Of a DNA stretch of 64,000 bases, positions 3,769 through 6,878 are shown in pieces (within the stretch, counting starts at the first letter, position 1; each line of letters starts with the position of its first letter). Source of the DNA: Modestobacter versicolor (GTDB lineage Bacteria > Actinomycetota > Actinomycetes > Mycobacteriales > Geodermatophilaceae). The notes below the pieces were generated by a model. That model was given only the letters and a program-made list of their open reading frames with translations, was not told where the DNA came from and ran no database searches. Position numbers and translations under genes: made by a program. Where the stretch lies: the NCBI RefSeq assembly GCF_014195485.1, contig NZ_JACIBU010000001.1:1860001-1924000 (forward strand). Direction: 5' to 3'.

Positions 3769-3830
3769 GGGTACCGTCAGCAGCAGGAACGGGCGACCGT
3801 CCCTGCAGCGTGCGTCACACAGCCGGCGCG
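3769..3830 (+). promoter_or_regulatory. Leader motif 1 of the GAF-ANTAR genes
   Basis: Two blocks shared with the other GAF-ANTAR genes: GGGTACCGTC beginning at 3769 and TGCGTCACACAGCCGGCG at 3811-3828. The second block starts 101 bp before the ATG at 3912. The first block resembles the -10 element (GGGTA) of SigB/SigF-type promoters, and a GTTC 16 bases before it could be the -35. The flanks of the second block (GCGTGC and GCGCGC) can pair, leaving GTCACACAGCCG in the loop. Confidence 0.55.
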
Positions 3831-3911
3831 CCCCAGCGTGGAGCCCCTCGCAGTGCCGGGGCTCCGTGTCCGGAGGCGCCCTGGCCTCCGGTGAGCGACC
3901 CGGAGGGGCCG

Positions 3912-4649
3912 ATGACCACCGACGAACGCACCCAGACCATGCCGGCCACCGAGGCCTTCGAGCGGCTCGGCTCGATGTCGCTGTCCGCGGAGTCGCTGGA
4001 GTCGGTGCTGCAGGCCGTCGCCGACCTGACCAAGCAGGTGCTGCCGGGCGACGTCGAGGCATCGGTCAGCGTGCTCGTCGCCGACAAGCCCGCCACCTTC
4101 GTCCACACCGGCCAGCTCGCCCTCGACCTCGACGAGAGCCAGTACGGCCGAGGCCACGGCCCCTGCCTGCAGGCGGCGGCGAGCGGCGAGCTGGTGGAGG
4201 TCGCCGACGCCCGCACCGAGAGCCGCTGGGCGGACTACATGCGGCGGGCCGTCGAGCTCGGGTCGCTGAGCTCGCTGTCGGTGCCGCTGGGCAGCTCCGA
4301 GGTGCTCGCGGCCGGGCTCAACATCTACGCCCGGCAGCCGGGCGCCTTCGACGACGACGCCGTCCGCCGCACGGCCGCCCGGTTCGCCCGCTTCGCCGGG
4401 GCTGCAGCGGCCAACATGCACGCGTACCAGCACGCGCGCGAGATGGCCGACAACCTCCAGGTCGCGCTGCAGTCGCGGGCCACCATCGACCAGGCCAAGG
4501 GCATCCTGGTCGAGCGGCACCGGATCACCCCCGACCAGGCGTTCCACCTCCTCGCCCGGGCGTCGATGGCGGCCAACCGCAAGCTCCGCGACGTCGCCGA
4601 GCACCTGGTCGCGACCGGCGAGCTGCTGGCGTCCCCGCAGCGCCGGTGA
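3912..4649 (+). CDS. GAF and ANTAR domain transcription antitermination regulator
   Basis: A 245-residue sensor-regulator. The N-terminal two thirds are a GAF domain with the typical GHGPCLQAA motif near residue 80. The ANTAR RNA-binding domain spans about residues 175-240 (IDQAKGILVERHRITPDQAF, then LRDVAEHLVATGE). ANTAR proteins bind paired hairpins in mRNA leaders and prevent termination. The ATG at 3912 is preceded by GGAGGGG at a good distance. It is the best intact match to the relic at 1249-1390 and is paralogous to the genes at 5058-5795 and 6150-6878. No kinase partner is adjacent; the signal is probably sensed by the GAF domain. Confidence 0.93.
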   Translation: MTTDERTQTMPATEAFERLGSMSLSAESLESVLQAVADLTKQVLPGDVEASVSVLVADKPATFVHTGQLALDLDESQYGRGHGPCLQAAASGELVEVADARTESRWADYMRRAVELGSLSSLSVPLGSSEVLAAGLNIYARQPGAFDDDAVRRTAARFARFAGAAAANMHAYQHAREMADNLQVALQSRATIDQAKGILVERHRITPDQAFHLLARASMAANRKLRDVAEHLVATGELLASPQRR

Positions 4650-4694
4650 CCCCCCGGCTGGACCCCGCCCGGCGGTCCAGCGCAGGCTGACCGG

Positions 4695-4925
4695 GTGGCG
4701 AACGTGATCGGGCTGCGGATGCGGCGACCGGGTGTGGACGACGACGACGGCGGCGCGCAGGAGAAGCTCGTCGGGCCGCTGCACGCGGTCGAGGGCGACG
4801 CCGGCCGCGCGGCCGCGGCGGCCTCCACCGAGGTGCAGGCGCTCTGCGGCGAGTGGGTGCAGGTGGTCGCGGTCGAGGACGTGCCCGACGACACCGGCCT
4901 GTGCGAGGCCTGCCAGTACGGCTGA
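4695..4925 (+). CDS. Small conserved-looking protein with C-terminal cysteines
   Basis: A 76-residue acidic protein starting at a GTG 46 bases after the GAF-ANTAR stop. It carries three cysteines in two short contexts (LCGEW and GLCEACQYG), which suggests a small metal site or zinc-ribbon-like tail. I do not recognise a family. Codon use matches its neighbours and a strong palindromic terminator follows, so I take it as a real gene, probably cotranscribed with the preceding regulator. Confidence 0.6.
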   Translation: MANVIGLRMRRPGVDDDDGGAQEKLVGPLHAVEGDAGRAAAAASTEVQALCGEWVQVVAVEDVPDDTGLCEACQYG

Positions 4926-4974
4926 CCGCACCGGGGAGGCGGCTCGGTGGCCGGTCGCTCGACCACCGAGCCTG

Positions 4975-5006
4975 GGCCCGTCTGCGTGCCGGCACGCAGA
5001 CGGGCC
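4975..5006. terminator. 32-bp perfect palindrome, bidirectional terminator
   Basis: GGCCCGTCTGCGTGCC followed directly by its exact reverse complement. It lies between the convergent genes ending at 4925 and 5058, so it probably terminates both. It has no unpaired loop bases in the DNA form. Confidence 0.75.
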
Positions 5007-5057
5007 GTGCCCGCCCACTGCCCGCGCCGGCCGGCGTCCAACCGGCGCGGCCGAGGG

Positions 5058-5795
5058 TCAGGCCAGGCCGGCGGCGCCGAGGTCGATGGCACCGGTCGCG
5101 ATCAGCTCCTCGGCGACGTCCCGGACCTTGGTGTTCGTCCGCATCGAGACCGAGGCCAGCGCACGGAACGCCTCGTCGGCGTCCAGTCGGTGGCGCTCCA
5201 TCAGGATGCCCTTGGCCTGGTCGATCAGGGCTCGGGACTCCAGCGCCACCCGCAGGTTGTCGGCCAGGTCGCGAGCGTGCTGGTAGGCGTAGACGTTGGA
5301 CGCCGCGACCGCCGCGTACGGCGCGAACCGGCGCGCCGTCGCCCGGGCGGCGTCGTCGAAGGCGTGCGCCTCGGTCGCGTAGAGGTTGAGAGCGCCCACC
5401 ACCCTGCCCTCGACGGACAGCGGCACCGACAGCGAGCTGCCGTTCCCGCGTTCCGCAGCCACCCGGCAGTAGTCGGCCCAGCGGGTCTCCGTCGAGGTGT
5501 CGGCGATCTCCACCTCCGCACCGCTGGAGGCGGCCGTCAGGCACGGGCCGTACCCCCGGGTGTACTGGCTCTCGTCCAGCTCCAGGGCCAGCTGCGCGGT
5601 GGACGACGGCGTCGACGGGCGGCCGTTCACCACCATCGAGATGGACGCCTCCGGCCCACCCGGCAGCACCTGCTTGGCCAGGTCGACGACGGTCTGCAGC
5701 ACCGACTCCACCGACTGGTCGGCCAGGGAGAGCCGGCCGAGCCGTTCGAGCGCCTCGACGGCCTCACGGGAAGGGAAGGGGTCACTGCTGGACAT
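5058..5795 (-). CDS. GAF and ANTAR domain transcription antitermination regulator
   Basis: A 245-residue paralogue of the 3912 gene, on the opposite strand. GAF domain with GYGPCLTAASSG near residue 85; ANTAR domain at about 175-238 (LIDQAKGILMERHRLDADEAF, then VRDVAEELIATG). The ATG at 5795 has CGGAG 8 bases upstream. It is divergent from the third copy at 6150, sharing a 354-bp intergenic region that holds one leader motif for each gene. The separate but similar leaders suggest joint control, possibly autoregulation. Confidence 0.93.
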   Translation of the reverse strand: MSSSDPFPSREAVEALERLGRLSLADQSVESVLQTVVDLAKQVLPGGPEASISMVVNGRPSTPSSTAQLALELDESQYTRGYGPCLTAASSGAEVEIADTSTETRWADYCRVAAERGNGSSLSVPLSVEGRVVGALNLYATEAHAFDDAARATARRFAPYAAVAASNVYAYQHARDLADNLRVALESRALIDQAKGILMERHRLDADEAFRALASVSMRTNTKVRDVAEELIATGAIDLGAAGLA

Positions 5796-5867
5796 GGCGG
5801 CACTCCGGTCGACTCACCGGGGTGGCGACCTCGGCACGAGCCCCGCGGTGGGGCCCCGCTCGCATGC

Positions 5868-5927
5868 ACGCCGCTGTGTGACGCACGGTGCCGCCGCGCG
5901 CACGCGGCAGTGCTGCGGACGGTACCC
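5868..5927 (-). promoter_or_regulatory. Leader motif 2 of the GAF-ANTAR genes
   Basis: On the minus strand, GGGTACCGTCC (from 5927 down) is followed at exactly the same spacing as in leader 1 (40 bp between GTACCG and TGCGTCACAC) by TGCGTCACACAGCGGCG, starting at 5885. The second block begins about 90 bp before the ATG at 5795. Confidence 0.55.
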
Positions 5928-6016
5928 GCCGGGACTCCCGAGCGGGTTCGTCCGGACCCCGGGCGGCGGTCGCGCCGGAACGACCGCGCGCGACTGGCTA
6001 TGCTGCTGCTGAACTG

Positions 6017-6034
6017 CGCGTCACACAGCCGGCG
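6017..6034 (+). promoter_or_regulatory. Leader motif 3 of the GAF-ANTAR genes
   Basis: CGCGTCACACAGCCGGCG, matching leader 1 in 17 of 18 bases, about 133 bp before the GTG at 6150. The GGGTACC block of the other two leaders is not present at the same distance. Instead GGCTATG is found about 20 bp before it (from 5996), with GGAAC a further 14 bp upstream. Confidence 0.5.
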
Positions 6035-6149
6035 TGCGGCACCGGGGGTCCACCAGCGGTCCCCACAACGGTCGGGTCCTCTCATCGTGCGAGGGCTCCT
6101 CCCCGCCGGCACAAGCGCTGTCCGGTTGCCATCGACGCCGGAGTACGAC

Positions 6150-6878
6150 GTGACCCGCCCCACCGCCCCCGATCCTGACGGCGACGTCGTCCAGCTCGCC
6201 TTCGACGAGCTGGGCCGGATGTCCTTCGCCGAGCACTCGCTCGAGTCGGTGCTGCAGAAGGTCACCGACCTGGCGGCGCGCGTGCTCCCTGGCGAGCCGG
6301 CCACCTCGGTGACGATCGTGGCCGACGGCCGGTCGAGCACCGTGGCCTCGAGCGATCCGCTGGCCCTGGAGCTCGACCTGGTGCAGTACGCCCAGGCCTC
6401 CGGCCCGTGCCTGGAGGCAGCGCTCAGCGGGCGGGTCGTGGAGCTCCTCGACACCGGCGCCGAGGAGCGGTGGGGTCCCTTCCCGCAGCTCGCCGCCCGG
6501 CGCGGTTGCCGCGGTGTGCTGTCCTTCCCCCTGCCGCCCCAGGAGCTGATCACCGGCGGGCTCAACGTCTACGCCCGCACCTCGCGGCCGCTGGACCAGC
6601 GGACCCGGGAGGTGGCGGCCCGGTTCGCCGCCTACGCCGTCGTCCCGGTGTCGAACATGTACCTGTACGAGACGGCGGTCGAGCGCGCCGAGCACCTGCG
6701 CGCCGCGCTGGACTCCCGCGCCGTGATCGACCAGGCCAAGGGCATCCTGATGGAGCGGCACAAGCTCTCCGCCGACCAGGCGTTCTCCGCGCTCGCCACG
6801 CTCTCCATGGAGCGCAACACGAAGGTGCGGGAGATCGCCGAGCAGTTCGTCCGGACCGGGGAGCTGCCGTCGTCCTGA
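6150..6878 (+). CDS. GAF and ANTAR domain transcription antitermination regulator
   Basis: A 242-residue third paralogue. GAF domain with QASGPCLEAALSG near residue 85; ANTAR domain at about 175-238 (VIDQAKGILMERHKLSADQAF, then VREIAEQFVRTGE). The GTG at 6150 has GGAG seven bases before it; a GTG further up (6088) lacks a ribosome site and would add low-complexity sequence. It is the most diverged of the three. The crotonase gene starts 20 bases after its stop and may be cotranscribed. Confidence 0.9.
   Translation: MTRPTAPDPDGDVVQLAFDELGRMSFAEHSLESVLQKVTDLAARVLPGEPATSVTIVADGRSSTVASSDPLALELDLVQYAQASGPCLEAALSGRVVELLDTGAEERWGPFPQLAARRGCRGVLSFPLPPQELITGGLNVYARTSRPLDQRTREVAARFAAYAVVPVSNMYLYETAVERAEHLRAALDSRAVIDQAKGILMERHKLSADQAFSALATLSMERNTKVREIAEQFVRTGELPSS

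What the first reader, a model, noticed from the sequence alone, without database searches (positions are those of the whole stretch)
3811..6034. Three GAF-ANTAR genes share a leader motif that could be their own RNA target
TGCGTCACACAGC plus CGGCG lies 90-135 bp before all three genes (3811, 5885 on the minus strand, 6017). In two of them GGGTACCGTC lies exactly 40 bp upstream of the motif. Flanking bases can form a short stem around a GTCACACAGC(C)G loop, and the stem bases differ between copies. ANTAR proteins act on leader RNAs, so the motif may be an antitermination target for auto- or cross-regulation. Alternatively it is a DNA operator or a promoter of a stress sigma factor (GGGTA resembles the SigB/SigF -10).
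Basis: partly seen in the sequence, partly recalled or inferred. Interest (0 to 1): 0.68.

Follow-up and report, generated by a model that had tools for sequence, protein, structure and literature searches.

The report
Structured mRNA leaders on ANTAR genes
The shared motif is the first stem-loop of two related, previously unlisted folded leaders on the messenger RNAs of a family of RNA-binding sensor proteins (GAF-ANTAR), which end in a hairpin that can hide the ribosome-binding site, so these sensors may control their own and each other's production.

Summary
The motif precedes all three GAF-ANTAR genes, and the flanking stem was correctly seen. It is part of a much larger structured leader RNA. 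Genes A and B carry one leader class (promoter -10, hairpin P0, motif hairpin P1, hairpin P2, then a segment that can pair with the Shine-Dalgarno, SD, region). Gene C carries a second class with the same P1. Both classes show compensatory base changes beyond a tree-aware null (0 of 400 and 0 of 300 simulations). Many P1 pairs are G-U wobbles, which a DNA operator would not keep. A -10 hexamer (TANNNT) upstream in about 80-90% of leaders places the motif inside the RNA. A covariance model finds the first class 98 times in 52 of 115 genomes of the family; 87 hits lie directly before GAF-ANTAR genes, and none turned up outside the family in a sample of the class. Rfam has no match. The canonical ANTAR-target signature (dual A1/G4 hexaloops) was tested and is absent, and there is no U-tract terminator. 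The best reading is translational control, default off by SD sequestration (computed), with ANTAR proteins as the likely but unproven ligand. The SigB/SigF promoter reading is not supported.

The parts
3772..3777 (+). predicted -10 hexamer TACCGT of gene A (no -35 assigned)
   Evidence: TANNNT present 36-44 nt before the motif in 38 of 48 leaders of this class, 2.9% in shuffles
3780..3809 (+). P0 hairpin of leader A
   Evidence: folded z -3.9; mean z over 48 leaders -1.42
3810..3831 (+). P1 motif hairpin of leader A: GUGCGUC [ACACAGCC] GGCGCGC
   Evidence: all 7 pairs can form (sequence); helix covariation
3840..3865 (+). P2 hairpin of leader A
   Evidence: GGAGCCCC/GGGGCUCC read from sequence; covariation of P2 across the family
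3870..3891 (+). P3 (SD-freeing) CCGGAGG/CCUCCGG of leader A
   Evidence: sequence; perfect 7 bp here where most relatives have CCGAGG/CCCCGG; one covarying P3 pair
3888..3906 (+). P4 (SD-sequestering) hairpin CCGG...CCGGAGG of leader A; shares CCGG with P3
   Evidence: thermodynamic model, P4 probability 0.81 for leader A
3912..4649 (+). gene A, GAF-ANTAR protein, 245 aa
   Evidence: Pfam GAF_2 and ANTAR
5919..5924 (-). predicted -10 hexamer TACCGT of gene B
5890..5910 (-). P0 hairpin of leader B
   Evidence: fold (z not significant for this copy)
5866..5886 (-). P1 motif hairpin of leader B: GUGCGUC [ACACAGC] GGCGUGC
   Evidence: 7 pairs; R1 match 83.4 bits, E 9e-12
5838..5856 (-). P2 hairpin of leader B: GGGCCCC [ACCGC] GGGGCUC
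5816..5834 (-). P3 of leader B: CCGAGG/CCCCGG (A.C mismatch)
   Evidence: sequence conservation in A1/A2
5802..5820 (-). P4 of leader B: CCGGU/ACCGG-AG covering the SD
   Evidence: P4 probability 0.96
5058..5795 (-). gene B, GAF-ANTAR protein, 245 aa
5999..6004 (+). predicted -10 hexamer TATGCT of gene C
   Evidence: TANNNT 14-24 nt before the motif in 38 of 43 leaders of this class, 2.4% in shuffles
6015..6038 (+). P1 motif hairpin of leader C (local form): UGCGCGUC [ACACAGCC] GGCGUGCG
6028..6110 (+). alternative long-range helix of leader C: GCCGGCG 6028-6034 with CGCCGGC 6104-6110, closing a domain with two hairpins
   Evidence: near-invariant complementarity, energetically close to local P1
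6121..6143 (+). SD-covering hairpin of leader C: UCCGGU/GCCGGA
6009..6144 (+). whole leader C as matched by model R2, 78 bits
6150..6878 (+). gene C, GAF-ANTAR protein, 242 aa

Best explanation
The motif is the conserved P1 hairpin (loop ASACAGC or ACACAGCC) near the 5' end of a structured mRNA leader. The leader exists in two classes, one on A/B-type and one on C-type GAF-ANTAR genes, and it controls translation initiation. Shown here: the RNA structure is conserved by compensatory change, the leader lies downstream of a conserved -10 hexamer, and the A/B class sits almost only in front of GAF-ANTAR genes. Computed but not measured: the fold that covers the SD (P4) is the more stable one, so the default is off. 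Inferred: factor binding at P0-P1-P2 (in class C, stabilising local P1 against the long-range GCCGGCG/CGCCGGC helix) shifts pairing so that the upstream decoy (CCGAGG in class A/B) takes the CCCCGGU strand away from the SD. Inferred and least certain: the factor is the ANTAR domain of the encoded protein or a paralogue, which gives auto- and cross-regulation.
For: Covariation: A2, 13 of 19 pairs with double changes, 0/500 shuffles reach the covariation score; tree-aware null 1.77 against 0.48 +/- 0.14, 0/400; class C 2.96 against 0.66 +/- 0.17, 0/300. P1 pairs in 93.7% of cells in the structure-blind MAFFT alignment, and G-U wobbles dominate two of its pairs, which argues for RNA over a DNA dyad. 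P0 and P2 hairpins fold better than dinucleotide shuffles (mean z -1.4 and -1.7 over 48). -10 hexamer in 38/48 and 38/43 leaders. The motif keeps its place in P1 while its distance to the -10 differs by about 20 nt between classes. SD-sequestering P4 has mean probability 0.73 and is about 4.9 kcal/mol better than P3 over 40 leaders. Specificity: R1 finds 3 confident sites in the own genome, all before GAF-ANTAR genes; family-wide 87 of 98 before GAF-ANTAR ORFs. The proteins are only 45-58% identical, so a conserved non-coding leader implies selection.
Against: No binding, expression or probing data. P3 and P4 are nearly invariant, so covariation cannot prove either of them or the switch; the P3/P4 and local/long-range energies are not finely balanced in every sequence. 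No canonical ANTAR hexaloop. Paralogues may share leaders by descent. A2 and A4 were aligned to their models, which favours the structure for P2 and the long class-C hairpin (less so for P1).
Confidence: 0.6

Rival explanations
1. The leader is a riboswitch-like or other cis element sensing a small molecule, temperature or another trans factor (not ANTAR), tuning GAF-ANTAR sensor levels.
For: A conserved loop and multi-helix core with an SD hairpin is also riboswitch-like anatomy; no canonical ANTAR hexaloops; no Rfam family matches.
Against: Association is almost exclusive with genes for RNA-binding proteins rather than with one metabolic pathway; core helices are short and variable apart from P1 and the SD region.
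Confidence: 0.25
2. The motif is a DNA operator or promoter element (stress sigma factor or a repressor) and the stem is incidental.
For: The 12-mer also occurs as a perfect DNA inverted repeat at a TIR-domain gene in the same genome.
Against: Wobble pairs and compensatory changes; variable distance to the -10 with fixed position in P1; GGGTA not conserved.
Confidence: 0.06
3. Shared leader by recent duplication of gene plus promoter, without regulatory function.
For: A, B and C are paralogues in one cluster; leaders persist before broken or deleted GAF-ANTAR genes.
Against: Proteins 45-58% identical while leader pairs are maintained by compensatory change across four genera.
Confidence: 0.05

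Closest known systems
ANTAR-target RNAs (EutV type; actinobacterial set of Mehta and Ramesh 2021, PMC8164766)
   Same: Structured 5' leader or RBS-overlapping RNA in organisms with ANTAR proteins; mutually exclusive pairings; translation control by RBS occlusion is reported for mycobacterial members (PMC8164766).
   Different: No dual (and no enriched single) A1/G4 hexaloop; motif loop is 7-8 nt ASACAGC(C); located on the ANTAR genes themselves rather than mainly on metabolic genes; no terminator.
SD-sequestering cis-regulatory leaders (translational riboswitches, ribosomal protein leaders)
   Same: 5' aptamer-like domain plus an expression platform in which an anti-SD strand can pair with the SD or with an upstream decoy.
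   Different: Ligand unknown; no Rfam family matches; seen only in four genera of one actinobacterial family in the genomes searched.

Membership tests
canonical ANTAR-target RNA | two stem-loops with hexanucleotide loops, A at position 1 and G at position 4, linker 2-25 nt | tested here: not met
   0 of 48 and 0 of 43 leaders with stems of at least 4 bp; 1 and 0 with 3 bp, not above shuffles; definition from PMC8164766
canonical ANTAR-target RNA | single A1/G4 hexaloop (minimal motif proposed in PMC8934654) | tested here: not met
   with stems of at least 4 bp not enriched: 7 of 48 against 7.8 in shuffles, 3 of 43 against 5.5; with 3 bp 24 of 48 against 17.1 +/- 3.8 in class A/B; definition
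canonical ANTAR-target RNA | alternative pairing with an intrinsic terminator (antitermination) | tested here: not met
   no TTTT run between motif and start codon in 91 leaders
canonical ANTAR-target RNA | lies in the mRNA leader or overlaps the RBS in cis to the regulated gene | tested here: met
   (transcription start predicted, not mapped)
canonical ANTAR-target RNA | bound by an ANTAR protein | not testable with these tools
   needs binding assays
known Rfam family | reaches a family's gathering score | tested here: not met
   only unrelated sub-threshold matches and the neighbouring tRNA
SigB/SigF-type promoter | conserved GGGTA -10 element | tested here: not met
   7 of 48 and 1 of 43 leaders
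translational (SD-sequestering) regulatory leader | conserved structure that includes the SD and a competing upstream pairing | tested here: inconclusive
   structure conserved, SD pairing predicted, but P3/P4 nearly invariant, so no covariation proof

The most novel reading that the evidence does not exclude
A closed riboregulatory network: a family of paralogous GAF-ANTAR sensors, each carrying the same P1 heptaloop/octaloop on its own mRNA, bind their own and their siblings' leaders through a non-hexaloop RNA element, so that sensor levels are set by RNA-level auto- and cross-regulation. It would be a new class of ANTAR recognition site.
Probability: 0.35. Interest if true: 0.8.

Novelty: new variant of a known kind. 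Interest (0 to 1): 0.62.

Why it matters
In the published actinobacterial survey (PMC8164766) some species (under 30%) have ANTAR proteins but no predicted target RNA, and genomes often carry many ANTAR paralogues (15 matches in this genome). A conserved structured RNA attached to the ANTAR genes themselves is a concrete candidate for a missed, non-hexaloop recognition site and for feedback wiring of a large sensor family, and it can be tested directly with short RNAs and the encoded proteins.

Tried and rejected
Rejected: SigB/SigF promoter (GGGTA not conserved); DNA operator (wobble pairs, covariation); intrinsic-terminator antitermination (no U-tract); canonical hexaloop target; Rfam families. 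Hits of R2 outside the family (G532, G180) have no GAF-ANTAR gene downstream and are taken as false positives. RNAalifold on the unanchored alignments recovered only P1 and P3 in class A/B and P1 and a short SD-side helix in class C; MAFFT misregistered P2 between clades, which the model-based realignment corrected. A long-range GCGUCA/UGACGC pairing with the region before the SD was considered for class C but was seen only in the window's genus. No paper describing these leaders was found.

Full report
What was claimed and what is there. The 12-mer GCGTCACACAGC sits before each of three GAF-ANTAR genes: A (3912-4649 +), B (5058-5795 -) and C (6150-6878 +). The whole genome (4.59 Mb) has six exact copies and none of the reversed control: these three, an inverted pair at a TIR-domain gene, and one more. 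A count alone would not be convincing: across 115 genomes of the family the 12-mer is only modestly above its control. But 24 of the 50 family matches whose surroundings I read lie just before a GAF-ANTAR gene, with long conserved flanks.

Two leader classes. To avoid selecting on the motif, I searched the family with protein C, fetched the upstream regions of the listed GAF-ANTAR matches as 98 stretches, and aligned those with a recognisable motif. A/B-class leaders read: TANNNT, P0 hairpin, P1 = GUGCGUC[ASACAGC]GGCGUGC, P2 hairpin, then (G/A)CCGAGG...CCCCGGU...ACCGGAGG and a start codon. C-class leaders read: TATGCT, P1 with loop ACACAGCC, P2, a long hairpin with a CCUGGAAC-type loop, CGCCGGC, and UCCGGUG...CGGAG before the start. 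Some divergent leaders keep the rest but have a degenerate motif.

It is an RNA structure. In the structure-blind MAFFT alignment A1 (39 leaders), P1 pairs form in 93.7% of cells and its outer pairs vary as UG/CG/UA, GU/GC/AU and GC/GU/AU/UA. After model-based realignment (A2, 64 rows), 13 of 19 pairs show changes on both sides and no shuffle of 500 reaches the covariation score. A null that evolves each column independently on the tree gives 0.48 +/- 0.14 against an observed 1.77 (0 of 400); P2 carries most of the signal, and the three outer P1 pairs have individual P values of 0.03-0.08. For the C class, 2.96 against 0.66 +/- 0.17 (0 of 300), from P2 and the long hairpin (shuffle control). 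The near-invariant helices (P3, P4, the C-class long-range helix and its SD helix) cannot be tested this way, apart from one P3 pair. P0 and P2 also fold better than dinucleotide shuffles in single sequences (mean z -1.42 and -1.69 over 48). Two P1 pairs are mostly G-U, which breaks the symmetry a DNA-binding dimer would use.

It is in the transcript. A TANNNT hexamer lies 36-44 nt before the motif in 38 of 48 A/B-class leaders and 14-24 nt before it in 38 of 43 C-class leaders, against 2-3% in shuffles. The -10 to motif distance differs by about 20 nt between classes, while the motif's place in P1 is constant. GGGTA is not conserved, so the stress-sigma idea fails. Transcription starts remain predicted, not mapped.

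Who carries it. Model R1 (A/B class) finds three confident sites in this genome: A, B and a third GAF-ANTAR paralogue at 456028-456131. In the family it finds 98 sites in 52 of 115 genomes, four of 12 genera. By matching these to the ANTAR matches and by fetching the other 38, I count 87 directly before a GAF-ANTAR ORF, 4 before broken remnants of such genes, 5 before a short unnamed protein family and 2 unclear. In 395 genomes drawn from the class only family members matched, with the caveat that stricter filters were used. R2 (C class) finds one strong site per genome in most of the genus, before C orthologues; its two weak hits outside the family have no GAF-ANTAR gene downstream. In one genome (G088) the C gene body is deleted but the leader remains.

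How it most likely works. None of 91 leaders has a TTTT run before the start codon, so intrinsic termination is unlikely. The SD (ACCGGAGG) can pair with CCCCGGU (P4), and the same strand can pair with the upstream (A)CCGAGG (P3). In 40 leaders P4 is favoured by about 4.9 kcal/mol and has mean probability 0.73 (for the two window leaders the script picked the wrong P3 strand, so only their P4 values are used): default off. In gene A the decoy is a perfect CCGGAGG/CCUCCGG, and in a few relatives P3 also changes compensatorily. In class C the 3' half of the motif can pair locally (P1) or with CGCCGGC about 75 nt downstream; the two folds are similar in energy on average (-0.8 +/- 6.0 kcal/mol). 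I therefore propose translational control in which occupancy of the 5' hairpins redirects the SD pairing. These steps are inferred.

Is it an ANTAR target? As a mechanism, plausible: an RNA leader found almost only on genes for RNA-binding proteins suggests feedback. As membership, no: the defining dual A1/G4 hexaloop (PMC8164766) is absent, and even the single hexaloop proposed as the minimal motif (PMC8934654) is not enriched with stems of 4 bp or more. I put direct ANTAR binding at about 0.4-0.5. No Rfam family matches and I found no paper on these leaders (the library holds open-licence papers only).

Limits. Genome names are withheld, so the family is unnamed here. Models were built from the leaders they count, and alignments fitted to a model lean towards its structure. 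All energies are from a nearest-neighbour model at 37 C.

Noticed in passing
L001 1501-1543 (G000:C1:1642818-1642860): Perfect inverted repeat GCTGTGTGACGCGCCA...TGGCGCGTCACACAGC at the start of a TIR-domain ORF (by my reading of the translation); another copy of the 12-mer lies 12 kb away (L003).
   Followed up: partly
L247, L248, L250, L251, L252 (genus g9): The same 12-mer in a hairpin GCCCGC[GUCACACA]GCGGGC between a TACCGT-like -10 and the start of an MFS transporter gene (oxalate/formate-antiporter-like by my reading), conserved in five genomes.
   Followed up: no
L253, L255 (genus g11): The 12-mer with conserved flanks immediately before an amidohydrolase gene resembling 8-oxoguanine/guanine deaminases (my reading).
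   Followed up: no
L198, L214, L215, L216, L229: A short protein family (..RRRQMDAARVRADLTTQALWFRYVALTGTGDLIDLDGYLQGL..) sits under the A/B-class leader; no Pfam match and no meaningful NCBIfam match. A GAF-type gene follows in L198.
   Followed up: partly
L075-, L078+, L081-, L084-, L088-, L101+; and L149-L151: Two further conserved leader classes on other GAF-ANTAR genes: one with GTGGGCACACG and a CCGGAGGC SD (g2/g3), one in g11.
   Followed up: no
L204, L207, L222, L224, L268: GAF-ANTAR genes that are broken or internally deleted but keep an intact leader.
   Followed up: partly
window 4697-4925: Small ORF between A and B encoding a protein ending in CEACQYG (CxxC).
   Followed up: no
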